43,223 nt of DNA from Pseudobdellovibrionaceae bacterium (GTDB lineage: Bacteria > Bdellovibrionota > Bdellovibrionia > Bdellovibrionales > UBA1609): the NCBI GenBank assembly GCA_030591685.1, contig JAUVAX010000018.1, forward strand, positions 1 to 43,223, written 5' to 3'. Position numbers and translations under genes: made by a program. The notes beneath the pieces were generated by a model. The model was not told where the DNA came from and made no database searches. It saw only the letters and a list, made by a program, of their open reading frames with translations. Below, in pieces: positions 9,009 to 24,231 of the stretch. Position 1 is the stretch's first letter; each line of letters opens with the position of its first letter.

Positions 9009-9392
9009 ATGAGCCGCGAGAACAATATATACGATCATGCGAAGAAGGTGCTATTTGTCGCCTTCTTTGCCTTCTCAATAAGTGCTTACTCTAAGGCCAC
9101 TGAAAATGTTTATAATTTTAAATTAAAAACCTGCAACAGTAAATCTTGTTATTTGCTAAAAACAAGTAAGGCTTCACGAGGTTTTTTAGATTCAATTTAT
9201 GTGTTAAATCGCTTACAGCTTTTGATTAAAAATAATAAAACTAAAAAAGTACAAACTGTTAATGCCAGCTCAGGGATTTATGACCCTGAATTAGACATGG
9301 TCCACATGCAGGCCCCTACCGACTGGAGCCCTGCTCAGCCCAGTGAGCTCATTGTTCACTTAAAAACTGGGGTTATTGAAGAGTTTAAATAA
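9009..9392 (+). CDS. Small secreted protein of unknown function
   Basis: A 127-residue protein with N-terminal hydrophobic segment VLFVAFFAFSISAYS (about residues 14-28), probably a signal peptide with a long charged n-region. The mature part is beta-rich, has two close cysteines (KTCNSKSC) and ends VHLKTGVIEEFK. It lies 11 nt after the preceding gene, so an operon is likely. Its last 36 bp (9357-9392) are part of the direct repeat that recurs at 10812 with a single-base deletion, so its 3' end marks the left side of an insertion. Confidence 0.65.
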   Translation: MSRENNIYDHAKKVLFVAFFAFSISAYSKATENVYNFKLKTCNSKSCYLLKTSKASRGFLDSIYVLNRLQLLIKNNKTKKVQTVNASSGIYDPELDMVHMQAPTDWSPAQPSELIVHLKTGVIEEFK

Positions 9393-9612
9393 TACTTTGC
9401 TTACCCTTTCATGTAATCCATAACGGAAACAAGGCTTAGTATTGAGGCTATGACATAGCCTACGATGCTGATGATAGGCATGTCCCCAGGCACTTTTGAA
9501 AGTGCTACAACAAGTGAGCTGCTTAAAATTAAGCTCCCAATAACAAGGCCTAAAAACAACAAATCTGACGAAGGGTTGAGGCTTCGCCTTAAGTCTTTGA
9601 TTTATTTTATTA
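9357..9612. repeat. Direct repeat, left copy (about 255 bp, about 80% identical to 10812-11066)
   Basis: This block contains the last 36 bp of the upstream secreted-protein gene followed by the 3' end of a ubiB gene on the opposite strand. The same arrangement recurs at 10812-11066. In the ubiB part I count about 40 differences over about 195 bp, mostly third positions. The two copies flank the gene at 9759-10802. The similarity stops at 9612, exactly where a GGTGCC motif begins. Confidence 0.85.
9401..9612 (-). pseudogene. ubiB C-terminal fragment (truncated)
   Basis: On the minus strand this encodes the last about 65 residues of a UbiB protein (KDLRRSLNP ... KVPGDMPIISIVGY ... DYMKG, stop at 9401-9403) in an unbroken frame. 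Against the intact gene at 10855-12519 it has about nine amino-acid changes, all mild (L/I, A/V, V/I, I/M) apart from H/P, S/D and R/G. Upstream, a GAA codon has become TAA and similarity ends, so there is no start and no kinase domain. The pattern of synonymous change implies that it diverged as part of a working gene and was truncated later. Confidence 0.85.
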
Positions 9613-10811: not shown

Positions 10812-11066
10812 CACTTAAAACTGGGGCTATTGAAGAGTTTAAATAATACTTTGCTTACCTTTTAATGTAATCGATCACAGCGACGAGGCTTAACACCGAT
10901 GCAATAGCATAGCCCACAATACTTAAGATAGGCATATCCCCAGGTACTTTTGAAAGTGCTACTACAAGTGAGCTACTTAAAATCAAACTCCCAATAACAA
11001 GGCCCAAAAACAGTAAGCTTGATGAGTGGTTTAAGCTGCGCCTTAAGTCTTTTATTTCTTTAATAC
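10812..11066. repeat. Direct repeat, right copy (pairs with 9357-9612)
   Basis: It starts with a 35-bp relic of the 3' end of the small secreted gene at 9009 (one A deleted, otherwise only one or two changes) and continues into the 3' end of the intact ubiB. Because this copy holds the relic of one gene and the intact end of the other, while the left copy does the reverse, the original junction was secreted gene - ubiB, with the cargo inserted between two versions of it. Confidence 0.85.
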
Positions 11067-12519
11067 TAATACTCATTGAATGATCAGGGCTGTTCCATTT
11101 ACGAAGCACTTGTTTAAGTTGCCGAGGCATACCGACAAGTAAATTATTTGTGTCTTTAGCTAAATAAGACAGGTCCTTTAAGAGTTTAGTTTTATCATAC
11201 TTAGCCCCAGCCACCTCTTTGGCAAAATCAAGGGCAAACTCTAGGGCGTCGAAATCTTTTTTTACCATTTTACCGAGGGCCTCGACGTTGACTACGGACT
11301 TAAAAAACATCACAAGCTCTGCTGGGAGCATAAGGTTATTGCGAGCCGCAATAGAGGTGGTCTGCATTAATAACCGGCCCGTATTAATATTATCTAGCGT
11401 TAGGCCATAAAAAGGCGCCACGAGGTCCCTTATTTGTCGTGATAAAATATCTACATCTACCGGGCCATTATAAGGTGATAGCTCTATGTATTCATAAGCA
11501 AAGCGTTCATAGTTTTCTGTTGCTAGGGCTATAAACATATTTGAAATTGAGTTTCTGGTTTTTGGGTTCAAGCGACCCACCTGCCCAAAATCAATAAGCC
11601 CTAATTGCCCCTCAGGGGTTACAAATAAATTACCCGGGTGCATATCCCCATGAAACAACCCGTCGGTAAAAACCATTTTAAAATAGCACTTTACCGCTGT
11701 GCTAATGAGTTTGTCTTTGTTGACATCTTTTTGTTCAAGGGCTCGTTTATTTGAAAGCGGCAGGCCCTCGAGCTGCTCCATAACTAAAACCTGCTCACCC
11801 GAGTGAGAGAGAAATACACTTGGTATTTTTATACCCTCAAAATCTTTAAAGTTTTTTTGAAATCTTTTTATATTATTGGCTTCAACGATAAAGTTTGTTT
11901 CAAGCTTTAGAGATTTAAAAAATTCATCGACAACACCTACGGGGTTATAAATATTAGCATCAGGCACGTATGCCGTAATAAGCTCTGCTAGTGCGTAGAG
12001 AACATTTAAGTCCTCAAAAATGATCTTTCTAATACCTGGCCTCTGTACTTTTACCACCACCGGCTCGCCAGTTCTTAAGGTCGCCTTATAAACCTGAGCA
12101 ATGCTGGCGGCCCCTATGGGGTCAGAGTTAAAGCTTGCAAAAATTTCTTCAAGGTCATCACCGTAGTGGTCCTCAACGACCTTTCTCATGAGTTTAAAAT
12201 CAACGGTGGTTACTTGATCTTGGAGTTTTTTAAATTCGTCACAAAACTCTATGGGTACTAAATCGGGTCGACCGGCCAAGAGTTGCCCTAGTTTTACAAA
12301 TGTAGGGCCCAGCTCCTCAAAGGCCATGCGTAGTCGCTCGGGGGTGGAGTGTTTGTTAACATCAATTTTAGTAAATTTATCGAGCACATATCGACCCATC
12401 GTGGCTCGCTCGGCGATGTTCTCAAAACCATGCCTGGCAAACACAGACAGGATCGTTTTAAAGCGTCCCACGCTTTTTATGGTGCTAAATGCTGACAGGT
12501 TTTTAGAGGCACGAATCAT
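10855..12519 (-). CDS. ubiB: UbiB/ABC1-family atypical kinase
   Basis: A membrane-anchored ABC1/ADCK-family protein, 554 residues, the usual length. UbiB proteins support ubiquinone biosynthesis through an ATPase or kinase-like activity. The family KxGQ motif is KLGQLLAGRPDLVP (K76-Q79). The Ala-rich nucleotide loop reads GAASIAQVYKA, the catalytic-loop equivalent is FHGDMHPGNLFV and the DFG-like motif is LIDFGQVGR. Two C-terminal hydrophobic segments (SSLLFLGLVIGSLILSSSLVVAL and ILSIVGYAIASVLSLVAVI) form the membrane hairpin. The gene is convergent to the 9759 gene. Its final about 195 bp are duplicated at 9401-9612. Whether its pathway is ubiquinone or another quinone cannot be read from this window. 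Confidence 0.92.
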   Translation of the reverse strand: MIRASKNLSAFSTIKSVGRFKTILSVFARHGFENIAERATMGRYVLDKFTKIDVNKHSTPERLRMAFEELGPTFVKLGQLLAGRPDLVPIEFCDEFKKLQDQVTTVDFKLMRKVVEDHYGDDLEEIFASFNSDPIGAASIAQVYKATLRTGEPVVVKVQRPGIRKIIFEDLNVLYALAELITAYVPDANIYNPVGVVDEFFKSLKLETNFIVEANNIKRFQKNFKDFEGIKIPSVFLSHSGEQVLVMEQLEGLPLSNKRALEQKDVNKDKLISTAVKCYFKMVFTDGLFHGDMHPGNLFVTPEGQLGLIDFGQVGRLNPKTRNSISNMFIALATENYERFAYEYIELSPYNGPVDVDILSRQIRDLVAPFYGLTLDNINTGRLLMQTTSIAARNNLMLPAELVMFFKSVVNVEALGKMVKKDFDALEFALDFAKEVAGAKYDKTKLLKDLSYLAKDTNNLLVGMPRQLKQVLRKWNSPDHSMSISIKEIKDLRRSLNHSSSLLFLGLVIGSLILSSSLVVALSKVPGDMPILSIVGYAIASVLSLVAVIDYIKR

Positions 12520-12593
12520 ACTTAACTTATCGGTTTTTTTAAAAAAATTTTAAAATTTGCGCCTCTAAAGCAACGACCCCGACTAGGCTTCAG

Positions 12594-12631
12594 GCCTGAC
12601 GATAAAAAATGAAAGCCCCGCAACGTCAGGC
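12594..12631. repeat. Inverted repeat between ubiB and the next gene
   Basis: GCCTGACG (12594-12601) and CGTCAGGC (12624-12631) form a perfect 8-bp stem with a 22-nt loop in the 190-bp space between two minus-strand genes. There is no T-run on either side, so this is not a standard terminator. It could be an operator or an mRNA structure in the ubiB leader. Confidence 0.45.
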
Positions 12632-12712
12632 GACTCAATTGTTATAAAAAACAACTACAGCGGATTATGGTTTTATTTTTATTTTTTTTATAAGTCTAAA
12701 AGCTTTGCTTAT

Positions 12713-13252
12713 TTAAAAATCATCCCAATAGCGATGGTTTGAGTCCCATTCGCTATCATTATGCCTACCGGGGTTTTCACATATTGAAAAAGAGACCGGA
12801 GTCCATTTTTTATAGGTGTTTCTCCTTAATCGCGATGTAGATCGAGACCTTTTAATCATTAGCTTTTGATAGGCCAAAATTAAGTCCCCGCGAGTTGTCA
12901 TACGAAGGGTTACTTTTTTATCATCAGAACAAATGGGGCACTTAACAAGGCCCGAAAGGTCCCCTTGGTTCGTCTCGAGCTCTAAGAGCTCGTGAGGGCC
13001 TATGTTTTTGATCACATTGTTCGAGGGTGAGGGTTGAAAAATAAAACTAGGCTCCCAGTACTGTACGTACCTAAAGTGATTTCGAGCCGCATACAGCCCT
13101 GAGGAGCAGTGCCATAACTCACCCTCTTGTAGTGATTCACTTGTTGGCATTAGGGCCTCTTTGTACTGCCTTTCAAAAAGTTCGAAAGCCATAGGACTTG
13201 ATGCAAAAGTATTTAAGTTTAACGAGAATGCGATAAGTAAAATAATGTTCAT
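12713..13252 (-). CDS. Small secreted protein of unknown function
   Basis: A 179-residue protein. MNIILLIAFSLNLNTFAS is a signal peptide, probably cut before SPMAF. The mature part has a CPIC pair (KCPICSDDKK) plus two further cysteines (WHCSSG, ICENPG), so metal binding or disulfide formation is possible. The C-terminal tail is basic, then Asn/Asp/Trp-rich. The ATG is preceded by G9 and a 3-nt spacer, so a homopolymer serves as the ribosome-binding site. A terminator-like hairpin lies further upstream in the leader. No family recognised. Confidence 0.65.
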   Translation of the reverse strand: MNIILLIAFSLNLNTFASSPMAFELFERQYKEALMPTSESLQEGELWHCSSGLYAARNHFRYVQYWEPSFIFQPSPSNNVIKNIGPHELLELETNQGDLSGLVKCPICSDDKKVTLRMTTRGDLILAYQKLMIKRSRSTSRLRRNTYKKWTPVSFSICENPGRHNDSEWDSNHRYWDDF

Positions 13253-13255
13253 AAT

Positions 13256-13264
13256 CCCCCCCCC
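13256..13264 (-). promoter_or_regulatory. G9 homopolymer as Shine-Dalgarno
   Basis: Nine consecutive G (minus strand) end 3 nt before the ATG at 13252. It is the only SD-like sequence. A change in run length would change the SD-to-start spacing. Confidence 0.6.
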
Positions 13265-13289
13265 GGAGAGTATCTAAGGGGGAAACTAC

Positions 13290-13315
13290 AAAAAAAAGGC
13301 CCTTAACTCAAGGCC
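13290..13315 (-). terminator. Terminator-like hairpin in the leader of the 12713-13252 gene
   Basis: Read on the minus strand, GGCCTT ... AAGGGCC forms a 6-bp stem with one bulged G, followed by T8, ending about 37 nt before the start codon at 13252. No minus-strand gene lies upstream that would need terminating, so it may be an attenuator in this gene's leader. The stem is short. Confidence 0.4.
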
Positions 13316-13404
13316 CGGCGCCAAAATGGGTCTTTTTGCTTTGATTTTCTACATTCACCCCTGCCGCAGCAAGGGCTTAAGGCCATGCAACAACAAACTT
13401 ACCC

Positions 13405-13433
13405 TTGACTTACACGTTTCTTACCGTTAACTT
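13405..13433 (+). promoter_or_regulatory. Possible lexA promoter and operator
   Basis: TTGACT (13405-13410) is a good -35; TAACTT (13428-13433) is a weak -10 after 17 bp. TTACCGTTAA at 13421-13430 overlaps the -10 and is nearly self-complementary, so it could be an autoregulatory LexA site, but it does not match the TTACN3GTAA box I recall as reported for Bdellovibrio LexA. Confidence 0.35.
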
Positions 13434-13452
13434 GAAAAAAGGAGTCTCTTTT

Positions 13453-14160
13453 ATGAAAAGAAAGCCAAAACCGCTCACACCAAAAGAAAAGTCAGTTCTT
13501 GAGTTTATCGAGCACTATTTTGTTACAAATGGTTACGCGCCATCATTTACTGAAATTAAAGAACATTTTGGTTTTGCCTCTTTCAACTCTGTACAACGCT
13601 ACTTAAAACAACTGCAGGGCAAAAATTATATCCATATGCCTGGCGGTAATCAAAAAAGAGCGATCACCTTACTTGTAGCTTCAAACTTTTTTAAAAGCCA
13701 TTTAAAAGAGACTTCTAGCGATGTTGCTTACGCCCAACCCTTAGGCTCGAAAGAGGCTCACCCTGAAAAATCTGAGTCTCTTTCGATACCCTTTTTAGGG
13801 TCTGTAGCTGCTGGGGCGCCCTTAGAGGCCACTTTTGATAATGAAACCTTAGATGTCCCCGCCTCACTCGTTAAGTACCCTAGTAAAACCTTTGCCCTTA
13901 GTGTTGAGGGTGACTCTATGATCGAAGACGGAATTTTAAACGGTGATATTTTACTCGCCTCCGAGCAAAGTGTTGCCAACAATGGCGACATTGTCATTGC
14001 TGTTGTTGAAAACGAAGCCACTGTTAAGCGCCTTTACTATAAAAAGGGCGAAAAAATGCTCGAGCTGCGACCAGCCAACTCAAAAATGAAAACCCTTTAC
14101 TACGAAGCCGAGCAAGTCACAATTAAGGGCCTTGTCACTGGGCTTTTAAGGCAGTTTTAG
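13453..14160 (+). CDS. lexA: LexA SOS repressor and self-cleaving protease
   Basis: The transcriptional repressor of the DNA-damage response; RecA filaments trigger its self-cleavage. The start at ATG 13453 has AAAGGAG upstream; an in-frame TTG at 13405 lies in the promoter and is not used. The N-terminal winged helix (GYAPSFTEIKEHFGFAS ... VQRYLKQLQ) is followed by the S24 peptidase domain. The cleavage site is A120-G121 (SVAAGAP), the nucleophile S155 (EGDSMIEDG) and the base K192 (EATVKRL). Spacings of 35 and 37 residues equal those of E. coli LexA (84, 119, 156). At 235 residues it is about 33 longer than E. coli LexA, almost all in the linker between the domains. Confidence 0.95.
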   Translation: MKRKPKPLTPKEKSVLEFIEHYFVTNGYAPSFTEIKEHFGFASFNSVQRYLKQLQGKNYIHMPGGNQKRAITLLVASNFFKSHLKETSSDVAYAQPLGSKEAHPEKSESLSIPFLGSVAAGAPLEATFDNETLDVPASLVKYPSKTFALSVEGDSMIEDGILNGDILLASEQSVANNGDIVIAVVENEATVKRLYYKKGEKMLELRPANSKMKTLYYEAEQVTIKGLVTGLLRQF

Positions 14161-14266
14161 TAAAAAACTCTTTCTCATAGTCTCTTTTCATTCCTTGCGA
14201 AAAAAGCCCCCTTCTTATAAACTCTATTACATATTTTTTAATATAACTCTTAAGGACTCCATTTAA

Positions 14267-15085
14267 GTGAAACTCTCTGTTTATAAAATGCACGGCACGG
14301 GTAATGATTTTTTAATTTTTGATGCCCGCTCTGACCAAAACACACAAGACCTGTTAACTCACCTGAAGGCAAAGTCTAGGCCTGAGTTTGTTAAGAGCAT
14401 TTGCCACCGAAACTTCGGCATAGGGGCTGACGGCTTTATTTTTATTGAAAACTCTAAGGACTGTGATTTTAAATGGGATTTTTATAATGCCGACGGCTCT
14501 AGTGCCGAAATGTGTGGCAATGCGGCCAGGTGCGTGACTCTTTGGGCTTATACTTTTAAGTTAACCGGTAAAAGTTTATGTTTTGAAACTCTTTCGGGTA
14601 TCATTAAAGGGTCTGTCGAGTCTGACAGTAAAGTTATTATCGACATGACTTGCCCCACACAAAAAAACTTTGAGCAAAATATTGAGATTAACAACAAAAG
14701 TTACCAATATGATTTTATAAACTCAGGGGTCCCCCATGTGGTCATCACCTTACCTAGTATTGAGCCCTCACCGGACCTTATAAGTATTTGTCGCAGCCTT
14801 CGGGCGCATGAAACATTTAAACCTGAAGGTGCAAATATCACTCTAGTAAAAGAGGTTAAAGCGGGAGTCATTGAGTCGGTCAGTTTTGAGCGCGGGGTTG
14901 AGGGCTTCACCCTAGCTTGTGGTACCGGTGCTGTCGCTGCCGCCATTAGCTATCAGCACACTCACTCAGGGCTCAGTACAGTTCAGGTAAATGTACCTGG
15001 CGGAGGGCTCAGTGTTGACCTAAGCCACTCACACCCAACTCTTATTGGCCCCGCAAAATTTATAATGAAAGCTCAACTCATATAA
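14267..15085 (+). CDS. dapF: Diaminopimelate epimerase
   Basis: A PLP-independent epimerase converting LL- to meso-diaminopimelate, the last step before lysine and the peptidoglycan cross-linking residue. The 272 residues match the family. The two catalytic cysteines are C83 (SSAEMCGNAARC) and C218 (TLACGTGAVAAA). KMHGTGNDF near the N-terminus and the ERGVEG segment before the second Cys are family signatures. It starts with GTG at 14267, with AAGGA about 10 nt upstream. A reductase gene begins 11 nt after the stop, so the two may be co-transcribed. Confidence 0.96.
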   Translation: MKLSVYKMHGTGNDFLIFDARSDQNTQDLLTHLKAKSRPEFVKSICHRNFGIGADGFIFIENSKDCDFKWDFYNADGSSAEMCGNAARCVTLWAYTFKLTGKSLCFETLSGIIKGSVESDSKVIIDMTCPTQKNFEQNIEINNKSYQYDFINSGVPHVVITLPSIEPSPDLISICRSLRAHETFKPEGANITLVKEVKAGVIESVSFERGVEGFTLACGTGAVAAAISYQHTHSGLSTVQVNVPGGGLSVDLSHSHPTLIGPAKFIMKAQLI

Positions 15086-15096
15086 GGATTTAAAAC

Positions 15097-16206
15097 ATGT
15101 CTACAGAAATTATGCACGAACTCACCGTTATTGAAAAAACACAAGAGACCTCTGATACAGCCACTTTTACGCTACAAATCCCTGCCGATAAGAAAACTCT
15201 TTTTTACTATAAGCCCGGGCAGTTTTTAACTGTCTTTATGACCATTGACAATAAATCTGTAGCCCGTAGCTACTCGTTTTCGTCATGCCCTATGGGCGAC
15301 CCCCACTTAAGCATAACGGTTAAAAGAGTCCCCGGGGGGATTGGGTCTAATTACTTGCTCGACCATGTACATAGTGGCGGCAAGCTGCTTGTGTCCCCTC
15401 CGGCGGGTCATTTTTTTAATATGGGGCAATCAGCTGAAGACGAGCTTGAGTACTATTTATTTGCCGCCGGCAGTGGTGTCACCCCGCTGTTTTCAGTTAT
15501 TAAATGGACCTTGCCGAGCTTACCAAAGCATAAAATTCATTTAATTTATTCTAATAAAACTCACGACTCTACAATTTTTTTAAATTCACTCAAGGACCTT
15601 GAAAAAAAATACCCCCAACTTAAAGTCACTTATTTTTACTCTCAACTTGAAGAGCCCCATCAAAGACTAACGGCTGATAACCTTAAACAAATACTCTCAG
15701 AGGCCTTTAGTACCCCTACAAAAAAATCATTTTACCTTTGTGGCCCCGAGGCCTATATGCAAACCATCGAAAACGAATTAAACACACACGATGTTGACCC
15801 TGCCTGGGTCCATAAAGAGAGCTTTTTTGCCCCCGAGGGTCAAGGCGAGGGTTTTAAAAGTAAGGCCCAAGAAAAGGGCATTTACATTGAGACGTTACCG
15901 GACGGTTTTAAACCCGAGGCCTGCGAGCAAATCACTGCCGACATTGATGGCGAGACTATCGTTGTTGACCTTAAAAATGAAACCGAAGAATCTATACTTG
16001 AGACCCTACTCGATGCCGGGCACACACCGCCTTTTTCATGTATGAGCGGCTCTTGCCAGGTCTGTATGTGTACACTTATTGAAGGCGAAGTCTTTCAAGA
16101 AAACGAGGGCGTACTTACTCAAGAGGATATTGATGATAAAAAGTTTCTCGCCTGCCAGGCCAAGGCTGTCTCTAAAAAATTAAAAATAGTTTTTGACGAG
16201 GATTAG
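15097..16206 (+). CDS. Ferredoxin-NADP reductase-type oxidoreductase with C-terminal 2Fe-2S domain
   Basis: A cytoplasmic electron-transfer protein passing electrons from NAD(P)H through FAD to a 2Fe-2S cluster and then to an oxygenase, desaturase or hydroxylase partner. Domains in order: FAD-binding barrel with RSYSFSSCP (about residues 53-61), NAD-binding domain with FAAGSGVTPLFSVI (about 125-138), then a plant-type ferredoxin domain with cluster ligands C315, C320, C323 and C353. This layout matches PaaE-like and desaturase-reductase proteins (about 350-370 residues). AAGGA precedes the ATG. The partner is unknown; the fatty-acid-hydroxylase-type gene at 31452 is one possible client in this window but is not linked. 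Confidence 0.85.
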   Translation: MSTEIMHELTVIEKTQETSDTATFTLQIPADKKTLFYYKPGQFLTVFMTIDNKSVARSYSFSSCPMGDPHLSITVKRVPGGIGSNYLLDHVHSGGKLLVSPPAGHFFNMGQSAEDELEYYLFAAGSGVTPLFSVIKWTLPSLPKHKIHLIYSNKTHDSTIFLNSLKDLEKKYPQLKVTYFYSQLEEPHQRLTADNLKQILSEAFSTPTKKSFYLCGPEAYMQTIENELNTHDVDPAWVHKESFFAPEGQGEGFKSKAQEKGIYIETLPDGFKPEACEQITADIDGETIVVDLKNETEESILETLLDAGHTPPFSCMSGSCQVCMCTLIEGEVFQENEGVLTQEDIDDKKFLACQAKAVSKKLKIVFDED

Positions 16207-16215
16207 ATTTGTTTT

Positions 16216-16692
16216 TTAAAGCCTCTGGTTGTCCTCAGTATCCGCGTGCTCCCATATACAATGGTGCTCTTCTTCGCAACGTTTACAGTGATGTGAGTTT
16301 AATATATGCCCCCTGACTAAGCTCACGCTCCCCAGAGTAACAAGTATAAACTCCCAGTGATGCCCTAAAAAATTATGGGCAAAAATTGTACCTAGAACAA
16401 CAAGGCCTAAACCCACACCTAGCCAAATCAGCGGCTGAAACTGCCCATGAACTTTAAACCCCGAATATACAGCAAAAGCCGTTGCCGGCAGTAAAAACGC
16501 CATTAAAGCAAAGTGAGTATTGTCCTCACTCAAGCCTAAAAAACTCGCCACAGCCGGAAAGGCGATAATCACTACTGGTAATAAAATACAGTGAACAATG
16601 CAAAGGCTTGATACCAAAACACCAAGCTTATCCCAAAACCTTATTGATTTTTTGGGGCTAATTATAGAAGGATTGTTTTTATCTAAACCCAT
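16216..16692 (-). CDS. MerC-domain membrane protein
   Basis: A four-helix inner-membrane protein of the MerC family, originally described in mercury transport but widespread with unknown substrates. The key motif is SSLCIVHCILLPVV, with the Cys-x3-His-Cys of MerC in helix 1. Three more hydrophobic spans follow (ALMAFLLPATAFAVY, LIWLGVGLGLVVLGTIFA, FILVTLGSVSLV). The C-terminal tail is His/Cys-rich (HHCKRCEEEHHC), suggesting a metal-binding site. I prefer the start at 16692 because AGAGG lies just upstream; the frame is open to another ATG at 16704. No mer operon is nearby, so zinc, copper or a thiol substrate is as likely as mercury. Confidence 0.8.
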   Translation of the reverse strand: MGLDKNNPSIISPKKSIRFWDKLGVLVSSLCIVHCILLPVVIIAFPAVASFLGLSEDNTHFALMAFLLPATAFAVYSGFKVHGQFQPLIWLGVGLGLVVLGTIFAHNFLGHHWEFILVTLGSVSLVRGHILNSHHCKRCEEEHHCIWEHADTEDNQRL

Positions 16693-16707
16693 GAAACCTC
16701 TCATAAG

Positions 16708-16725
16708 TTACGCATACTGTCGTAA
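16708..16725. promoter_or_regulatory. Inverted repeat in front of the MerC-like gene, possible operator
   Basis: TTACG (16708-16712) and CGTAA (16721-16725) are separated by 8 bp; the flanks extend the symmetry by one imperfect position each side. The site lies 16 bp upstream of the preferred start, where a repressor could block transcription. The binding protein is unknown. Confidence 0.4.
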
Positions 16726-16749
16726 GTCATGGGCCGGGTCAACTTTTCT

Positions 16750-17436
16750 TCACCGTATGTTTTGAAAAAACTTTTTGAGCTGCATTATAATAGATTGAGG
16801 GATCTCGTGCCCCCCCTTAAACCCGGCCCAGTGCCCATGCAGGCCGCTTTCTGAAAGCATTTCATTTAAATCCTCGGCCCCACTAAACGGTAGTACTGCG
16901 TCTTGCTGACCATGACTTTGAAAAAATACCATGCCTTCGCAACTGGGGGCGCTTTTTCTCCATCCGGCCTCATCTATAAAAGTGCCGGAGAGTATAACAA
17001 GCGCCTCTGGCTTATCAGGTGCTGATAAGGTGAGCTCTGTTGTCATCATGGCCCCTTGACTAAAACCACCCACAATTAAAGTGTCATACTCTTCTCGTAA
17101 TTTTTCGTATAAGGGTCGAAGTTTTTTTTGAGCCCCATCAAGCCCCTCAGGCCTGCTAGATTTGAAATCTCTAAACTCACCCCTTTGCATAGCACGCTCC
17201 ATGGCCATGATATCTATATGAAACCAGGCTCTCCCCCCCATGGGGAGCTGTATAGCTGCATTTGGAAAGTACCAATCCATCTGTAAGCCTGAGCCTATAG
17301 CATCAGCCAATGGGGCAAGGTCATTATTATCAGCGCCAAAGCCATGTAAAATTAGGCAAGCCGCTTTAGCTTTATTTTTAGATTTTTTAACAACTGTTTG
17401 TAATCCACAGATATTCTCAACCACAACAACACCCAC
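16750..17436 (-). CDS. Carboxylesterase/phospholipase (alpha/beta hydrolase)
   Basis: A serine hydrolase of the Abhydrolase_2 (phospholipase/carboxylesterase, acyl-protein-thioesterase-like) family, 228 residues, the usual length. The oxyanion region is LILHGFGADNNDL, the nucleophile elbow GGFSQGAMM, the acid HGQQDAVLPF and the His GGHEIP. No signal peptide, so it is cytoplasmic. It begins with GTG at 17436, but an in-frame GTG at 17424 has better spacing from the upstream AGGTGG. The physiological substrate is not evident. Confidence 0.88.
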   Translation of the reverse strand: MGVVVVENICGLQTVVKKSKNKAKAACLILHGFGADNNDLAPLADAIGSGLQMDWYFPNAAIQLPMGGRAWFHIDIMAMERAMQRGEFRDFKSSRPEGLDGAQKKLRPLYEKLREEYDTLIVGGFSQGAMMTTELTLSAPDKPEALVILSGTFIDEAGWRKSAPSCEGMVFFQSHGQQDAVLPFSGAEDLNEMLSESGLHGHWAGFKGGHEIPQSIIMQLKKFFQNIR

Positions 17437-17521
17437 CTTTTAATTAAGGCTATAATTTTATTAAACAAATGTAACGCAAAACAACTAGCCCACATACGCC
17501 CATTAAGTCTACTATCATCTT

Positions 17522-17986
17522 ATGAAAAAGGTTTTATTTGTTTGTTTAGGTAATATTTGTCGCTCTCCGGCGGCCGAAGCTATATTTACTCAGCTCATTG
17601 AAAAAAACAACCTCACAGGCCAGGTCAGCTGTGACTCTGCGGGCACTTCACATATTCATGAAGGCACCCCCTCTGATCGCCGCATGACTGAACATGCGAA
17701 ACTGCGTAATTATGATATCACCAGCACCTCTAGACACTTTAACCCCCAGAGTGATTTTGAAACCTTTGACCTTATAATTACCATGGATAACCGCAATCAC
17801 AGCGACCTGTTTAATGTTGAGTTCTCTGAGGCGTATCACCATAAAATAAAAAAAATGACCGACTATTGCCAAAACCACGACGTCACACAAGTACCGGACC
17901 CCTATATAGGCGGCCCCCAGGGCTTCGAATTAGTTTTAAATATCCTCGAAGACGCTTGTGGTGAGCTTATAAAAACCTTTCGTTAA
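17522..17986 (+). CDS. Low-molecular-weight protein tyrosine phosphatase
   Basis: A cytoplasmic Cys-dependent phosphatase of the LMW-PTP / arsenate-reductase-like fold, 154 residues. The phosphate loop is CLGNICRSP with nucleophile C8, C13 and R14; the general acid is D126 in VPDPYIGG. All catalytic residues are present. Such enzymes dephosphorylate bacterial tyrosine kinases or small phosphoesters. The last 123 bp (17864-17986) are duplicated at 20938-21060 with eight substitutions and no gap, so this gene's 3' end marks the left border of the accessory block. Confidence 0.94.
   Translation: MKKVLFVCLGNICRSPAAEAIFTQLIEKNNLTGQVSCDSAGTSHIHEGTPSDRRMTEHAKLRNYDITSTSRHFNPQSDFETFDLIITMDNRNHSDLFNVEFSEAYHHKIKKMTDYCQNHDVTQVPDPYIGGPQGFELVLNILEDACGELIKTFR
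17864..17986. repeat. Direct repeat, left copy (phosphatase 3' end)
   Basis: These 123 bp form the 3' end of the LMW phosphatase. The copy at 20938-21060 is 115/123 identical (counted by eye) with no indels. The pair encloses the 2.95-kb block with the peptidase, lipoprotein and toxin-antitoxin genes. Confidence 0.9.
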
Positions 17987-18004
17987 GTGTCGCAATAGAA
18001 ACTT

Positions 18005-18021
18005 GAATTCAGCCTGGCACC
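18005..18021 (-). other. GGTGCC...CTGAATTC motif near the left edge of the accessory block
   Basis: On the minus strand GGTGCC is followed after three bases by CTGAATTC. The plus-strand segment 18005-18020 matches 13 of 16 bases of the right arm of the palindrome at 22464-22479. It begins 19 bp after the phosphatase stop. Confidence 0.45.
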
Positions 18022-18084
18022 TGAATGAAAAGTGGTTTTAAATACATGATGATCTGTTTGTTCATCTGAATTTGGGAATAGCGT

Positions 18085-18828
18085 ATGCTGTTAAAAGTTA
18101 TTTTTGGGTTATTGTTACTTTGTATTGATGCGTTTGCTGGTGAGCAATGTTTAGTTGGTGACCATTGGGTTGAATCTCATCATCGCCGGGCTTATGTAAG
18201 GTATGATGCTGTTCCCGTGAGGTCCACTACAGTGAACGGTCATTGCCGCAAGACCCCCCGTGGCTACGAAACATGGCATAGTAGGTTATCAAATGGTCGC
18301 CCAGGAATATGGGGCTATACGAGAGAGAAATCTAAAAAATGGTCCGTAGAAGAAACAGAACGATTTTTATCGGCAATTTCTGTTTTGCCAGATAAATTGG
18401 CTCACCTTAAGGGCGTATTTGTTTATCGAATGAAAGCGTCGAAAGATTTAGCAAACCCTGCAACCAGCAACGGAAGAGACATTGTATTGTACGACTTGGC
18501 CTTTCAGCATAAGGATTCATTGTCACAGATTATATCCCATGAATTATCTCACATCGTCTACAGGAAAACAGGGGTAGTTGATTTAGACAGGTTTAAGCGT
18601 TTGGCCGGCTGGAAACAGCTTAGCAAAGGCTCTAGCGTTTATACAGCGACCAAGAGGAAGATATTTATTCAGGAGGATAGTAGAGCCTCAATACCTGAGG
18701 ACTTCTCGAATCATTTAGAGCATTACCTATTTAAGAATGATTCACTGAAAGCTGAATCTCCATATGCATATAAATGGATTCAAAAAGAATTTGGTCTGAA
18801 ATTTAAATTCCAAGAGGAGGGGAAATGA
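18085..18828 (+). CDS. Putative secreted zinc metallopeptidase
   Basis: A 247-residue protein with signal peptide MLLKVIFGLLLLCIDAFA cut before GEQC. A zincin motif HELSH (H152, E153, H156) sits in QIISHELSHIVY, and a downstream SIPEDFSNHLEHYL (E205 onwards) could give the third zinc ligand and resembles the ExFAExF pattern of small zinc peptidases. Two N-terminal cysteines could form a disulfide. The next gene overlaps its stop by 4 nt, so the two are translated together. The gene lies inside the repeat-bounded block. No exact family can be named; protease function is inferred from the motif alone. Confidence 0.7.
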   Translation: MLLKVIFGLLLLCIDAFAGEQCLVGDHWVESHHRRAYVRYDAVPVRSTTVNGHCRKTPRGYETWHSRLSNGRPGIWGYTREKSKKWSVEETERFLSAISVLPDKLAHLKGVFVYRMKASKDLANPATSNGRDIVLYDLAFQHKDSLSQIISHELSHIVYRKTGVVDLDRFKRLAGWKQLSKGSSVYTATKRKIFIQEDSRASIPEDFSNHLEHYLFKNDSLKAESPYAYKWIQKEFGLKFKFQEEGK

Positions 18829-19496
18829 GAATTGTTTCAAGTGTCTTGATAAGTTTTTTTGTTGCAGGGTGCGTAACATTATTCAATAAAAGTAAATCAG
18901 AGTTCACTGTTGATGAGCTTTTAAAGCTAAAAATTAGCGTTGATACTAGTGAAGTCATCAAGAAACGATTGGGCAACCCTCACGAGAAAATATTTTACTC
19001 TAGTCAGGTTAAGGGAGGGGAGAAATCAGAGAAGTGGATTTATATTTTCGAGAAGACGCCTAAATTATGGTTATTTTTCAAGGGGGGCATATTGGAGCAC
19101 GCATCCTTGGGAGTATGGGATAGAGATAATGTTTCCTCTGTAGGAGGTTTATTGTCTCAGTTAGAAGGTCAGACTTGGTCTATAGTAAAGGAACCAGTAA
19201 GAAATCCTCATTCTATGCCTAATATGTGTATGCTGGTGAGTGAAAGACTTGGCATCAATGTAAAAGTTAACAGTATGATGAGGAGAGTGGATGAAATAAA
19301 TCTATGGAACCCTAGTATTAAAAGGAAAATAAAGTGGTTTGATGATTCGGTACCAGAATTTTGCATTGCCAACCACTGCTCAAATGTGACTGACCCTAAT
19401 GCGTGGGAACATAATCACTGTGAATGGCTAGAGGAAATAGTGGCTAGACAAACAGTGGGTGTAGGCAAAAATCCGGCAACCAGGGTGTCGAATTAA
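18825..19496 (+). CDS. Lipoprotein with a BamE/SmpA-like N-terminal region
   Basis: A 223-residue predicted lipoprotein with lipobox VAGC (MRIVSSVLISFFVAGC). Residues about 38-105 (VIKKRLGNPHEKIF ... KWIYIFEKTPKLWLFFKGGILEHASLG) have the G-x-P-x-x-x-x-x ... W-x-Y pattern of BamE/SmpA-type small envelope domains. The C-terminal half has five cysteines and a His-rich ANHCSN ... EHNHCEW stretch. It overlaps the peptidase gene by ATGA, implying coupled translation and possibly a shared periplasmic task. The BamE comparison is a by-eye resemblance. Confidence 0.65.
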   Translation: MRIVSSVLISFFVAGCVTLFNKSKSEFTVDELLKLKISVDTSEVIKKRLGNPHEKIFYSSQVKGGEKSEKWIYIFEKTPKLWLFFKGGILEHASLGVWDRDNVSSVGGLLSQLEGQTWSIVKEPVRNPHSMPNMCMLVSERLGINVKVNSMMRRVDEINLWNPSIKRKIKWFDDSVPEFCIANHCSNVTDPNAWEHNHCEWLEEIVARQTVGVGKNPATRVSN

Positions 19497-19666
19497 AAAC
19501 TTTTATTGGCCTAAATGTGATAAATTCTTTTATCGTTATAGTTTTCCCAGGCACGATTAACATTGGAGTGTCCCATTCAAATAGAGATGTTTTAGATGAG
19601 AGGCCTCTGGAGAGCATCAGATCAAAAAAACATTGTAAGCATGTGATACTATTAAATAAATTAGCT

Positions 19667-19687
19667 ATTATCCCTATATAGTATAAT
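19667..19687. promoter_or_regulatory. Operator-like repeat 1 upstream of the toxin-antitoxin pair
   Basis: ATTATCCCTATA starts a 21-bp site ending GTATAAT, with ATTAT/ATAAT outer arms and a central CTATATAG palindrome. TATAAT at 19682-19687 could be the promoter -10. It matches the site at 19725-19745 in 18 of 21 positions. Confidence 0.6.
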
Positions 19688-19724
19688 TACATAAAAACCT
19701 TTTGATTTAAGATACTTACATGTT

Positions 19725-19745
19725 ATTATCCCTATACGGCATAAT
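19725..19745. promoter_or_regulatory. Operator-like repeat 2 upstream of the toxin-antitoxin pair
   Basis: A second 21-bp site beginning ATTATCCCTATA and ending GCATAAT, 58 bp downstream of the first in the same orientation and 18 bp before the antitoxin start. The likely ligand is the XRE domain encoded just downstream, which would make this an autoregulatory region. The TATCC half resembles half of the HipB operator pattern. Confidence 0.6.
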
Positions 19746-19763
19746 AATGAATGGGAGATTTTG

Positions 19764-20321
19764 ATGAGTGAAGATCCAAGACAACCTAGCCGCCCTGCTA
19801 AGTTAACGGCTATAGGGGCAGCGCTTAAGGAAGAGCGCATGAGCCTTGGGATGACTCAAACTCAAGTCGCTGATCAGTTTGAAATAAGCTTAAAGGCTTT
19901 ACGTAATCTGGAGCAAGGAAAGGGGAGCGTTAGTTTTGCAAAAATTTTAAAAATACTAGCGTTATTTGGAAAAGAACTTCGAGTTGGTGATTTATTAATG
20001 TCTCCACGAAAGCGTTCTAAAACTCGACCTCGGCGTGAAAATATTTTGGAGATTCTGCAGCTAATTAAACCTATTTTAGGTAAAAAATTTAATATTCAGA
20101 GTCTAGCCTTGTTTGGCAGCTGTGCAAGAGACAAAGCTAAAAATAATTCCGACATTGACATTGCTGTGCAGTTTTCGAAGAAACCAAGCTTTACTCTCTT
20201 AGGCAAATTAACAGTTTTTTTAGAAACTCTTTTTGAGGGTAATAAAGTAGATTTGGTAGAGTTTGATAAAATGCTACCAGAGGTGCATAAAACGGCTCAA
20301 GAGGACTTTATTTATGTCTAA
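19764..20321 (+). CDS. mntA: XRE helix-turn-helix / MntA-type nucleotidyltransferase antitoxin
   Basis: The antitoxin of a HepT-MntA system: in characterised systems MntA uses ATP to AMPylate a tyrosine of the HEPN toxin. Residues about 12-70 form an XRE-type HTH (GAALKEERMSLGMTQTQVA ... ALRNLEQGKGSVSFAKI). Residues about 85-185 are a minimal nucleotidyltransferase with GSCAR (G118-R122) and catalytic D130 and D132 (SDIDIAV). Fusing the DNA-binding and transferase parts puts autoregulation and neutralisation in one chain. I chose ATG 19764 over the in-frame TTG at 19761; GGGAG precedes it. The toxin gene overlaps its stop. Symbol used by family only. Confidence 0.88.
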   Translation: MSEDPRQPSRPAKLTAIGAALKEERMSLGMTQTQVADQFEISLKALRNLEQGKGSVSFAKILKILALFGKELRVGDLLMSPRKRSKTRPRRENILEILQLIKPILGKKFNIQSLALFGSCARDKAKNNSDIDIAVQFSKKPSFTLLGKLTVFLETLFEGNKVDLVEFDKMLPEVHKTAQEDFIYV

Positions 20322-20691
20322 AAAATATAATAATAGTGCTTTTTCTTTAAAAGAAATGATTGGTGCCTGTGTAAAAATTCAAGAATATATATTGAACACT
20401 ACAGAAGAGGAATTCTTAAAAAAAAGAGAGTCCTTTGATGCTATATGTATGCAGTTTTCACATCTAGGAGAGCAAGTAAGCCGTCTAGAATCATCTTCAG
20501 ACAGAATAATTCAACATTATCCCGACGAAGTTAATTGGCACGGACTAAATGGTTTGAGAAACCGAATTGATCATGCCTATTTTGATGTGGATGCAGAAAT
20601 GATATGGAGTTTTGCAAATGATGAAGTTAAAGATCTTGAAGGTGAATTGCGAAGGATTTTAAAAAAGCGATTTGGGCAAAGTTACCCTTAG
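20314..20691 (+). CDS. hepT: HEPN-domain ribonuclease toxin (HepT, DUF86)
   Basis: The toxin of the pair: HepT proteins are all-helical HEPN RNases. The 125-residue protein has the RX4HXY signature RNRIDHAY (R82, H87, Y89); Y89 is the position AMPylated in characterised HepT proteins. The start ATG at 20314 overlaps the antitoxin stop by 8 nt and has AGAGGA upstream; an in-frame ATG at 20263 lies deep in the antitoxin gene and is less likely. All catalytic residues are present, so the toxin looks active and would need its antitoxin. Confidence 0.9.
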   Translation: MSKKYNNSAFSLKEMIGACVKIQEYILNTTEEEFLKKRESFDAICMQFSHLGEQVSRLESSSDRIIQHYPDEVNWHGLNGLRNRIDHAYFDVDAEMIWSFANDEVKDLEGELRRILKKRFGQSYP

Positions 20692-20937
20692 GTTTTGTTT
20701 GTTTGGTATAAACAGCGTTATATATAATGAAGTTTTGTGATAAAAGTAACCGTGGATCATGAAATACGGTAAACGGGGACTGAGCCTCAATCTCTGTCTT
20801 TTTTTAAAAAACAACAACCCCAATGATCTCTATCGGAGACTTTGATCTGCATGTAATCTATCGAAATCAATACAACATACCAGAAAAGTGCCTTAGTATA
20901 TTAAGTATGACTAAAATTACTATAAGCGTATTACTAA

Positions 20938-21060
20938 TATTGCAAAAATCACGACGTCACAGAAGTACCGGACCCCTATATAGGTGGCCCCCAGGGCTTC
21001 GAATTAGTTTTAAATATCCTCGAAGACGCCTGTGGTGAGCTTATAACAACATTTCGTTAG
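20938..21060 (+). pseudogene. LMW phosphatase C-terminal fragment (direct repeat, right copy)
   Basis: It encodes the last 40 residues of the phosphatase (YCKNHDVTEVPDPYIGG ... CGELITTFR) in an open frame that ends in TAG where the intact gene has TAA. Of eight substitutions against 17864-17986, four are synonymous, three change an amino acid (Q/K, Q/E, K/T) and one swaps the stop codon. There is no start codon or phosphate loop. Frame and stop being preserved implies it diverged as part of a functional gene. Confidence 0.88.
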
Positions 21061-21208
21061 ATTTGCTCCTAAACTGTATGGTAGAGACGGTGACATCGCT
21101 CTAACTCTTTGAACTCACGGCTTCAAATTTTACGATTACTACAATTCACCACAGTTCCAGGGGCTTTATTGGTCTTAAGTATAGCATCTGCCGTATAAGC
21201 ACAAACAC

Positions 21209-21279
21209 TTTACTAAGCCTAACCGTTAGTAAACATCCCTTTACTACTGGACTTCCTTATTAAACAGTGCTTTACTAAG
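21209..21279. promoter_or_regulatory. Cluster of four TTTACTA boxes in front of fic
   Basis: TTTACTAAG at 21209-21217 and again at 21271-21279 (part of an 11-bp direct repeat), the inverse GTTAGTAAA at 21225-21233, and TTTACTAC at 21240-21247. The last box ends 3 nt before the fic ATG, where an SD would normally be. The Fic protein carries its own winged helix, a natural candidate to bind here. Confidence 0.5.
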
Positions 21280-21282
21280 CGT

Positions 21283-22443
21283 ATGGGACAACCAACAGGT
21301 AAATACGTTATAAATACTACAGCCGGAGAAGAGGTTAAGGCTTTTGTCCCCAACTCTCTCCCACCCATTCCAAGGATAGAGGCTGGTGAAGATATACAAA
21401 ATTTAATTCGACAATGTGAGATCTCGTTAAGTGAATTGAAGATTGCCACCAGCATGATCCCCGACAAGGGTTTGTTCGCTTACACCTTTGTAAGGAAAGA
21501 GGCTATTTTATCTTCCCAAATTGAAAACATTCAAGCAACACTTACCGATTTATTCAGCTTTGAATCCGAAATTATTGAAATTGAAAACTCGGATGAAGTA
21601 CAAGAGGTTTGCAATTATATTGATGCCCTTAAATATGCTCAAAGACAAATTAATTTATCAAAAGGCCTTCCTATTTCTAAAAGACTCTTCCAAGAAATAC
21701 ATAAGCGAATTATGAAAGGCGTTCGTGGGTCACAAAAAAAACCTGGTGAATTTCGCCAATCACAAAATTGGGTCGGCGGCACAAGGCCTGGCAATGCTCA
21801 ATACGTACCTCCGCCCCCCTCTGAGATGAACAAATGCTTAGACCAATTAGAAAAATACATTCACCAGAGCAATCAAGATCTACATCCTTTAGTAAAAATT
21901 GGCTTAATACATGTCCAATTTGAATCTATCCATCCTTTTTTAGATGGAAATGGTCGCCTAGGCCGTCTACTTATTGTTCTTTTATTGGAAAAATGGGGGC
22001 TATCAACAGCACTATCCTTCTACCCAAGTTTACATTTCAAGCGGCACCGAAATAAATATTATGACTTACTAACCGGCGTGAGGATATCAGGCGACTGGGA
22101 GGCTTGGAATCGTTTTTTTCTTGAAGCTATTAATATTTCTGCACAAGAAGCTACACTTTTAGCGCAAAATATTTTTGAGCTCCAACAAAAATTTAGAATT
22201 AAATTAATAAATCAAAAAGATATTTCTATGCCAACGATCAGACTTTTCGAGCTCCTACCAAGTCATCCTATTTTAAACATGAACCGAGTGGTGGAAATTC
22301 TTAACGTAACAAAACCCACAGCGAACAAGGCTCTAACTCAATTGCAAAACGCAAATGTTTTGCGAGAAACTACTTCGGGTCAGCGTAACAGGGTTTTTGT
22401 ATATAAAAACTACCTTGACCTCCTAACTAAAGATACAGGGTAG
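21283..22443 (+). CDS. Fic-family AMP-transferase with inhibitory helix and C-terminal winged helix
   Basis: Fic enzymes transfer AMP or related groups from nucleotides to protein hydroxyls. The catalytic motif HPFLDGNGRLGR (H217-R228) is complete. An N-terminal inhibitory motif SSQIEN (S77, E81, N82) matches the (S/T)xxxE(G/N) of class II Fic proteins, in which the Glu blocks ATP binding until relieved. The last about 75 residues (MPTIRLFELLPSHP ... VTKPTANKALTQLQNANVL) form a winged helix suited to DNA binding. The 386-residue length is usual for Fic proteins of this arrangement. No SD is present; instead a TTTACTAAG box abuts the start. It lies outside the phosphatase repeat pair but next to it. 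Confidence 0.93.
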   Translation: MGQPTGKYVINTTAGEEVKAFVPNSLPPIPRIEAGEDIQNLIRQCEISLSELKIATSMIPDKGLFAYTFVRKEAILSSQIENIQATLTDLFSFESEIIEIENSDEVQEVCNYIDALKYAQRQINLSKGLPISKRLFQEIHKRIMKGVRGSQKKPGEFRQSQNWVGGTRPGNAQYVPPPPSEMNKCLDQLEKYIHQSNQDLHPLVKIGLIHVQFESIHPFLDGNGRLGRLLIVLLLEKWGLSTALSFYPSLHFKRHRNKYYDLLTGVRISGDWEAWNRFFLEAINISAQEATLLAQNIFELQQKFRIKLINQKDISMPTIRLFELLPSHPILNMNRVVEILNVTKPTANKALTQLQNANVLRETTSGQRNRVFVYKNYLDLLTKDTG

Positions 22444-22447
22444 TTTG

Positions 22448-22479
22448 GTGCCTGTCTGAATTCGAATTCAGACAGGCAC
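22448..22479. repeat. Perfect 32-bp palindrome between fic and fadL
   Basis: GTGCCTGTCTGAATTC (22448-22463) is followed at once by its exact reverse complement (22464-22479) with no loop. It begins 4 nt after the fic stop and ends 1 nt before the fadL stop codon on the other strand. No T-run follows on either side, so it is not a textbook terminator, although a cruciform or hairpin could separate the convergent genes. It carries the GGTGCC/CTGAATT motif seen at the other insertion edges. Confidence 0.85.
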
Positions 22480-22480
22480 A

Positions 22481-23740
22481 CTATAGCGGAACCTTTACGC
22501 TTGTGTGAATAGCAAAAGTATTTGTGTCAAAATCACCGGTCGAGCCATAATAGGCTGTTTTATTTTGTTCTGAGGCAAACCCATACTCAATTGTGGCCTC
22601 TAAAGTATATTGATTAAATGATTTACCAGCACCGAAGGCAAAATAGTATGAGCGGCCAGGGGGCGCAAAACTAGCAGAGGCCAAATGACTAGCCGTAACC
22701 GGGCTGGCTGAGGCGTACCCTCCCCTAAAAATCCACTCTTCAATACCTGAGTACTCAACTGCACATTTATATGTGATTTTATCTTTCCATGACTGAGGGA
22801 TTGAGCTGACCCCTGATACACCCGGGGTCAATTTAAAACTTTTGTTATCAGAGTACTTTGCAGAGCTTAGCCCCAAGAAGGTTTGCCAATGAGGGTTGAT
22901 TTTTTTAAAGTAATCAATCGACCATTTCTCCGGAAACGAGTTTTCTGCCAAAAGTGCCCCTGAAGACCCAGCAACAACACCCAAAGGCACACACCCAAGG
23001 GTGCAAACCTCTGAAGCAAAATTCCCCTTAACTTTAAAATCAACTTTTGAACGGAAAGAGAGCCCCACGCCCCAATCTTTTTTTGGCAAATACTGCACCC
23101 CCAGTTTAAAACCCTCGTAGTCTTCACTGGAGAGTTCTTTTAAATGAAGCGCTACAAGATTATTAGACCCATCAACGGACCATAGGTTTACGTCTGCCGT
23201 TACAAATGTGCTGCGCCAACCAAGCCCTACTGACAAAACGTCATTAACTTGATAGCCCACGCCTAGCGAAAGCTCTAAAATTTTTATATCTATTGTTTGA
23301 TCAGGGGTCATCCCATAGCTTGGTGAAAAATCTATGTTTTTATACTCAGCCCTTGCCCCGCCGACAGTGTAAACACCTCCGCCAATAGATATTTTATTAT
23401 TTAATTTGTACTTACCCATAATCCCAAAGTCTGGCGAGACCACCTGTGTGCCCTTTTCTTGCGGAGGGTTGGGGTTTATTGTATTCGGAACAATGGGGCC
23501 ATTAAATGTTGAAAAGCTCGGGGATAAGTTAATACTCACTTCCTGCCCTGAACCATGCACTAAACCTGCGGGGTTAAAAAAAACAGCTTCAGCACCCTCT
23601 ACACTCGCCGAGGCAGACCCGGCAAGTGCTGACCATTTTGCTGACCAAGGTGTCGCTTTTTCAAAACCGCCGGATTGAGCTAGTAAACTCTGATAAAAAA
23701 ATAAAAATCCCAGGGCTAAACATAGTTTTCTAAGCAACAT
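22481..23740 (-). CDS. fadL: FadL/OmpP1-family outer-membrane long-chain fatty acid channel
   Basis: An outer-membrane beta-barrel taking up long-chain fatty acids or other hydrophobic compounds. The start at 23740 follows AAGGAGAG and gives signal peptide MLLRKLCLALGFLFFYQSLLA; the frame is open 18 codons further upstream but without support. The N-terminal plug region has the family motif AVFFNPAGLVHG and SASASVEGAEA; alternating beta-strand patterns run to the C-terminus, which ends HTSVKVPL. At 419 residues it matches the family. It is the third gene of a parA - unknown - fadL operon. Fatty-acid uptake would suit a predator digesting prey lipids. Confidence 0.88.
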   Translation of the reverse strand: MLLRKLCLALGFLFFYQSLLAQSGGFEKATPWSAKWSALAGSASASVEGAEAVFFNPAGLVHGSGQEVSINLSPSFSTFNGPIVPNTINPNPPQEKGTQVVSPDFGIMGKYKLNNKISIGGGVYTVGGARAEYKNIDFSPSYGMTPDQTIDIKILELSLGVGYQVNDVLSVGLGWRSTFVTADVNLWSVDGSNNLVALHLKELSSEDYEGFKLGVQYLPKKDWGVGLSFRSKVDFKVKGNFASEVCTLGCVPLGVVAGSSGALLAENSFPEKWSIDYFKKINPHWQTFLGLSSAKYSDNKSFKLTPGVSGVSSIPQSWKDKITYKCAVEYSGIEEWIFRGGYASASPVTASHLASASFAPPGRSYYFAFGAGKSFNQYTLEATIEYGFASEQNKTAYYGSTGDFDTNTFAIHTSVKVPL

Positions 23741-23781
23741 CACTCTCCTTAATGAAAAGTTGAACTTAACAAAGATAACTC

Positions 23782-24231
23782 TTAAAGTCCCCATTTATCA
23801 ATAAGCTGACTGAGTTCGGAGAACTCTGAAATAATCGCCTCTTGTGAGAGAAGTGCCTTTTCATTTCTTAAAGCTTGTTTGGCCTCATCTACTTTTTTTT
23901 GATCGGGGGTGGTTTCTTTCCACGTGTACTCTAATATATAGGCCCCTTTAGATTTATACTCCATAGAAGATTGGGTTACGCCGGCATTTGACATTATATA
24001 AAACCGAACAACAACCTCTTGTTGATGGTTCAACCAAACTTGACCTGTGTATAAGCCTAAATCCTCTTTTTTATTAAGTAAATAGCTCTCTTCATTGCCT
24101 TTTGAATCTTTTATTTTAACGTAAACTTGCTCTTCTGTTAAAGTCGGCACACCTTTAAGCTCTATAGCGCAACCAATACTATCAGAGCTTAATTTTGTTG
24201 AGTCGACAAAAAGTGGGTTCAACTTGTTCAT
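23782..24231 (-). CDS. Unknown protein encoded between parA and fadL
   Basis: A 149-residue cytoplasmic protein without signal peptide. The start at 24231 overlaps the parA stop by ATGA, so it is translationally coupled to parA. The N-terminal two thirds look like one beta-sandwich (GCAIELKGVPTLTEEQVYVKI ... VVVRFYIMSNAGVTQSS); the C-terminal about 45 residues are a charged helix (DQKKVDEAKQALRNEKALLS). No ParB-like HTH is visible. It could be the cargo adaptor or partner of this ParA, but that is inference from position only. Confidence 0.65.
   Translation of the reverse strand: MNKLNPLFVDSTKLSSDSIGCAIELKGVPTLTEEQVYVKIKDSKGNEESYLLNKKEDLGLYTGQVWLNHQQEVVVRFYIMSNAGVTQSSMEYKSKGAYILEYTWKETTPDQKKVDEAKQALRNEKALLSQEAIISEFSELSQLIDKWGL

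What the first reader, a model, noticed from the sequence alone, without database searches (positions are those of the whole stretch)
17864..21060. Accessory block bounded by two versions of a phosphatase gene 3' end
The last 123 bp of the LMW phosphatase gene recur 3.07 kb downstream with eight substitutions and no gap. The second copy keeps the reading frame and a stop codon (TAG instead of TAA), and half of its changes are synonymous. It therefore diverged while part of a functional gene and did not decay in place from the local copy. The simplest account is that DNA from a related genome, carrying its own phosphatase 3' end plus peptidase, lipoprotein and toxin-antitoxin genes, was joined here with the local gene left whole. 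This resembles integrative elements that use gene 3' ends, but no integrase is present.
Basis: partly seen in the sequence, partly recalled or inferred. Interest (0 to 1): 0.7.

Follow-up and report, generated by a model that had tools for sequence, protein, structure and literature searches.

The report
Gene-end scar beside accessory gene block
In a Bdellovibrio-relative genome, a phosphatase gene's tail recurs 3 kb downstream beyond peptidase, lipoprotein and toxin-antitoxin genes, most likely a scar from joining two versions of one locus; a second case lies in the same contig.

Summary
The last 123 nt of the LMW-phosphatase gene (17864-17986) recur at 20938-21060 with 8 substitutions and no gap; they occur twice in the genome. 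Gene order in relative G005 shows that everything between phosphatase and FadL (17987-22480: peptidase, lipoprotein, MNT-HepT pair, gene-end copy, Fic) is extra. Best reading: two diverged versions of one locus, with different downstream genes, were joined, leaving one version's gene end behind. For the phosphatase alone the codon signal is weak (P 0.01-0.09), but the copy carries the family-consensus residue at two of three amino-acid differences. A second duplicated gene end lies in the same contig, at ubiB (9357-9610 versus 10812-11064): 30 of 42 coding differences sit at third codon positions (P 5e-7). No integrase was found near the block, and no other of 141 order genomes has an isolated phosphatase end. 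It resembles known scars (icdC, Vibrio effector arrays). No close relative is held, so donor and direction stay open.

The parts
17522..17986 (+). LMW protein-tyrosine phosphatase gene, whole (154 aa)
   Evidence: Pfam LMWPc 4.5e-36; matches in 50 of 141 order genomes
17864..17986 (+). 3' end of the phosphatase gene, first copy
17978..18014 (-). Remnant of an IS30-family element end (33/37 nt to the end of the element at C91:1-1050); its outer end is at the 18014 side
   Evidence: local alignment score 29 against 13-17 for shuffled ends
18010..18022 (+). Half of a palindrome-like target next to the IS end, resembling the palindrome at 22448-22479
   Evidence: the motif GAATTCAGNCNGGCAC has exact matches only here and in both arms of that palindrome; interpretation inferred
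18085..18828 (+). Putative zinc peptidase (HELSH motif); no Pfam, NCBIfam or PADLOC match
   Evidence: relatives in G024, G026, G003
18825..19496 (+). Lipoprotein-like partner gene, overlapping the peptidase stop
   Evidence: pair conserved in G024 (37% identity)
19666..19745 (.). Two 22-nt direct repeats (19666-19687, 19724-19745) ahead of the MNT gene, possible autoregulatory operator
   Evidence: family D12; function inferred
19764..20321 (+). HTH-MNT nucleotidyltransferase, putative antitoxin
   Evidence: Pfam Polbeta and HTH_3; NCBIfam MntA below cut-off
20317..20691 (+). HepT-like (HEPN) putative RNase toxin
   Evidence: Pfam HepT-like 2.5e-17
20938..21060 (+). Second copy of the phosphatase 3' end, in frame, stop TAG; novel joint at 20937/20938
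21283..22443 (+). SoFic-like Fic gene between the gene-end copy and FadL
   Evidence: Pfam Fic; PADLOC SoFic 5e-115
22448..22479 (.). Perfect 32-nt palindrome next to the FadL stop codon
   Evidence: I20
22481..23794 (-). FadL-type outer-membrane protein gene; the next conserved gene behind the phosphatase in G005
10812..11064 (-). Second case: 3' end of the ubiB/ABC1 gene plus 43 nt
9357..9610 (-). Second case: diverged copy of that gene end, 83% identical, one early stop codon
9759..10802 (+). Second case: unassigned 347-aa gene between the two ubiB ends

Best explanation
The region is a scar of recombination between two diverged versions of the phosphatase-FadL locus, each with its own accessory genes behind the phosphatase. 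In one version an IS30-family element inserted just behind the phosphatase and was then mostly deleted, fusing its end to the gene's last codons; the peptidase, lipoprotein and MNT-HepT genes follow. The other version had the phosphatase, then Fic, then FadL. Incoming DNA of one version recombined by homology in or upstream of the phosphatase and was joined without homology at 20937/20938 into the other version's gene. The phosphatase stayed whole and the last 123 nt of the other gene were stranded. Shown: the duplication, its uniqueness, the insertion relative to G005, the IS30 end, the reading frame and substitution pattern, and a parallel case at ubiB. Inferred: two haplotypes, homology on one side with an illegitimate join on the other, and the polarity.
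For: Order in G005 (L147): LexA, DapF, reductase, MerC, esterase, phosphatase, FadL, unknown gene, ParA, with phosphatase and FadL convergent about 450 nt apart and no Fic or block. The copy is in frame with its own stop; pS 0.19 versus pN 0.03, P 0.01-0.07. At positions 117 and 123 the copy carries the commonest residue of the family (K in 14, E in 16 of 32 relatives), the whole gene a rare one (Q, 1 of 32 each). The ubiB ends: 30 of 42 differences at third positions, 60 of 70 residues identical, hard to reconcile with a fragment that drifted neutrally since a local duplication (P 0.0004-0.009). An IS30-family end sits exactly where the phosphatase copies stop matching. The genome has a ComEC-family gene, so DNA uptake is possible. 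Formation of gene arrays by one-sided homology plus illegitimate joining has been proposed for Vibrio, including a displaced effector 3' end (PMC5361080); the process is reported in three competent species and in E. coli conjugation (PMC3240628 abstract).
Against: No donor or empty-site relative close enough to show either haplotype. For the phosphatase alone the codon signal is marginal. No IS30 end was found at the ubiB case or at the 20937/20938 joint. The ubiB copy's residues are mostly the less common ones, so polarity may differ between the two cases. The 43 nt after the ubiB stop differ by only one substitution and one indel, less than its coding part (P 0.009), and this is not explained.
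Confidence: 0.52

Rival explanations
1. Remnant of an integrase-driven element that targets the phosphatase 3' end, of the e14/icd kind or a cis-mobilizable element (CIME). The element supplied a new gene end and displaced the old one to its far side; the integrase was lost or acted in trans.
For: The architecture is that of icd-e14-icdC, where I counted 12 differences in 165 nt, 11 at third positions, against 8 in 123 here. CIMEs flanked by gene-end att sites without recombination genes are common in streptococci (PMC7563491).
Against: No integrase or relic in the block; the genome has three tyrosine recombinases, two Xer-like and one of 180 aa, none in this contig. No second, 3'-end-only phosphatase copy in the other genomes of 141 searched. 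The one phage-collection record matching the end holds the nearly whole gene. The repeat's far boundary coincides with an IS30 remnant.
Confidence: 0.2
2. Local duplication: the gene end was copied together with the insertion (insertion with long target duplication), or a tandem second gene copy lost its front, and the copies diverged in place.
For: The two copies are closer to each other than to any held relative and share residues seen in none of the aligned relatives, such as PDPYIGG. Insertions with long target duplications are described for restriction-modification genes (PMC3031569).
Against: For the phosphatase, two of three amino-acid differences lie in the intact gene, not in the supposedly free fragment. 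For ubiB the third-position excess argues against a neutral fragment. Relatives with a phosphatase have a single one, apart from one split and one weak match.
Confidence: 0.22
3. Assembly chimera that joined two strains' contigs.
For: The genome is in 98 contigs and two haplotypes are exactly what a chimera would show.
Against: The longest exact match between the copies is 44 nt, far below the 126-nt contig overlap seen between C45 and C91, and there is no shared sequence across 20937/20938 beyond six bases. Contamination is listed as 0.72%.
Confidence: 0.05

Closest known systems
icd / e14 / icdC in Escherichia coli K-12
   Same: Whole gene, accessory DNA, then an in-frame 3'-end copy of the gene with mostly synonymous differences.
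   Different: e14 is a 15-kb prophage with integrase and excisionase; here 3 kb, four genes, no recombinase, and an IS30-family end at the junction.
Homology-facilitated illegitimate recombination and the Vibrio T6SS immunity arrays (PMC5361080)
   Same: New genes added behind a conserved gene with the old gene's 3' end shifted downstream; homology needed on one side only.
   Different: Here the anchor is a housekeeping gene, the cargo is mixed, and the donor is not known.
Insertion with long target duplication (Nobusato 2000, cited in PMC3031569)
   Same: Accessory genes flanked by a long direct repeat with no transposase gene.
   Different: Copies differ by 6.5% (17% at ubiB) in a coding-like pattern; the cargo is toxin-antitoxin and unassigned genes rather than restriction-modification.
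Cis-mobilizable elements (CIMEs)
   Same: Cargo flanked by gene-end repeats and lacking recombination genes.
   Different: No related element with an integrase using this site was found.

Membership tests
e14-type integrative element | Whole target gene with a displaced in-frame 3' end in the same orientation at the far side | tested here: met
e14-type integrative element | Encodes a site-specific recombinase | tested here: not met
e14-type integrative element | Same site used by other elements in related genomes | tested here: not met
   141 genomes of the order, phages
CIME | Flanked by recombination sites but without recombination or mobilisation genes | tested here: inconclusive
   A gene-end repeat flanks the block and no such genes are present, but the repeat was not shown to be a recombination site
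CIME | Derived from an ICE or IME that uses the same att site | tested here: not met
   no such element found
Homology-facilitated illegitimate recombination product | One homologous crossover and one non-homologous joint against known donor and recipient | not testable with these tools
   no donor or empty-site relative held; the joint at 20937/20938 has no homology beyond six bases
Insertion with long target duplication | Empty relative carries a single target copy matching both repeats | not testable with these tools
   nearest relative 58% identical in protein
IS30-family end | Terminal sequence shared with an element that has an IS30 transposase | tested here: met
   33/37 nt to C91:1-37; transposase NF033563 6e-61, above cut-off
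MNT-HepT toxin-antitoxin pair | Adjacent nucleotidyltransferase and HepT-like genes | tested here: met
   NCBIfam equivalog cut-offs for MntA and HepT not reached

The most novel reading that the evidence does not exclude
Accessory genes in this lineage are repeatedly added behind the 3' ends of housekeeping genes by an integrase-independent route that strands a gene end from a related lineage each time, so that stranded ends mark past gene acquisitions.
Probability: 0.15. Interest if true: 0.6.

Novelty: new member of a known kind. Interest (0 to 1): 0.37.

Why it matters
Stranded gene ends record which version of a locus was displaced and by what. Two within about 10 kb of one contig suggest that exchange between diverged lineages adds genes, some of them related to phage-defence and toxin-antitoxin families, in this Bdellovibrio relative without phages or integrases being visible. 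The diagnostic used here (reading frame, codon positions, family-consensus residues, insertion-sequence ends) can be run over any genome.

Tried and rejected
Phage and plasmid origin of the block: peptidase absent from both collections and from viral contigs; no plasmid DNA match. A phage record matching the phosphatase end holds the nearly whole gene, residues 3-153, in an unverified fecal scaffold. Rfam found nothing at 9000-23000. Repeats in about 540 kb of sampled own-genome sequence, window included: clear gene-end cases only the two in this window; C93:21073-21148/22027-22108 is weak (74%). The copy's flank after its stop codon is not a significant IS30 end. Flanking palindrome as an element end: only suggestive.

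Full report
Observation. The repeat is as described: 123 nt at 17864-17986 and 20938-21060, 8 substitutions, no gap. It occurs nowhere else in the 2.66 Mb genome in which the window is contig C22. The organism appears to be a member of the Bdellovibrionota, judged by its relatives; no genome of its own genus turned up among the relatives searched.

What surrounds it. Between the phosphatase and FadL lie a putative peptidase with HELSH motif, a lipoprotein-like gene, an HTH-MNT and HepT-like pair, the gene-end copy, a SoFic-like Fic gene and a perfect palindrome. In G005 the order LexA, DapF, reductase, MerC, esterase, phosphatase, FadL, unknown gene, ParA, SOD is kept, and phosphatase and FadL are convergent about 450 nt apart. 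All of 17987-22480 is therefore extra relative to G005. The peptidase-lipoprotein pair occurs elsewhere in the family at unrelated sites.

Did the copy diverge as a gene? For the phosphatase: synonymous 5 of 26.5 sites, non-synonymous 3 of 96.5, P 0.01-0.07 depending on the treatment of the stop codon and of transitions; third-position excess P 0.09. Among 32 relatives the copy's K117 and E123 are the commonest residues, the whole gene's Q rare. Both copies share residues seen in none of the aligned relatives, so they are each other's closest kin. This favours two versions of a functional gene but does not prove it.

A second case. 9357-9610 repeats 10812-11064: the last 210 nt of the ubiB/ABC1 gene and 43 nt beyond, with an unassigned gene between. 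Of 42 coding differences 9, 3 and 30 fall at codon positions 1, 2 and 3 (P 5e-7); 60 of 70 residues are kept, with one early stop. If the fragment had drifted freely since a local duplication, the expected third-position share would be 0.45-0.52, P 0.0004-0.009 (a simple model with an assumed rate for the intact gene). The fragment therefore probably spent most of its divergence inside a working gene.

The IS30 end. Searching the sequence behind the phosphatase stop in the genome gave two further places, both at the end of one IS30-family element (C91:1-1050, transposase NF033563; overlapping C45:1-126; one transposase copy). Positions 17978-18014, the last 9 nt of the gene and 28 nt beyond, match its end at 33 of 37. 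The shared TTTCGYTAAG suggests that a deletion fused gene end and IS end at a short identity, which would explain TAA versus TAG and the abrupt end of similarity (inference). The half-palindrome behind it resembles the palindrome at 22448-22479; E. coli IS30 is known to insert into nearly palindromic hot spots (PMC9333248).

Mechanism. Two versions of the locus with different downstream genes, joined by homology on the phosphatase side and without homology at 20937/20938, give this arrangement without a recombinase. Such joining is documented (PMC3240628) and was proposed for Vibrio arrays that retain a displaced effector's 3' end (PMC5361080). The same architecture in E. coli, icd-e14-icdC, has 12 differences in 165 nt, 11 at third positions, and is integrase-made; so an element that lost its recombinase remains a real rival, weakened by the lack of any second 3'-end-only copy in the other genomes of 141 searched and by the IS30 boundary.

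Limits. No close relative is held, reads are not available, and the genome was sampled (about 540 kb with the window) rather than searched in full.

Noticed in passing
window 9357-9610 and 10812-11064: A second duplicated gene end (ubiB/ABC1) around an unassigned gene, with a strong third-codon-position signature.
   Followed up: yes
window 17978-18014; C91:1-1050 (L239); C45:1-126 (L180): IS30-family element in the own genome whose end is preserved as a remnant fused to the phosphatase stop.
   Followed up: yes
L163 (G026:C15) 9286-9355 and 11876-11946: In G026 the peptidase-lipoprotein pair sits between a SNF2 helicase gene and a frameshifted 71-nt piece of that gene.
   Followed up: partly
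L040 (G024:C21) 1486-1710: A peptidase gene reduced to its C-terminal part (about 54 matching residues) next to an intact lipoprotein gene.
   Followed up: no
L217 (C7) 963-1170 and 1783-1998; L180 (C45) 8348-8472 and 9261-9432: Non-coding repeats of about 50-220 nt on either side of single acetyltransferase genes, cassette-like.
   Followed up: no
L234 (C61) 1462-2004: A 180-aa tyrosine recombinase, the only one of three in the genome that is not XerC/XerD-like in length.
   Followed up: partly
window 22448-22479: Perfect 32-nt palindrome with no loop, one base from the FadL stop codon and without a T-run.
   Followed up: partly
window 43112-43223: Two exact 56-nt units of a TTATTTAG-type tandem repeat at the contig end, probably why the contig ends there.
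   Followed up: no
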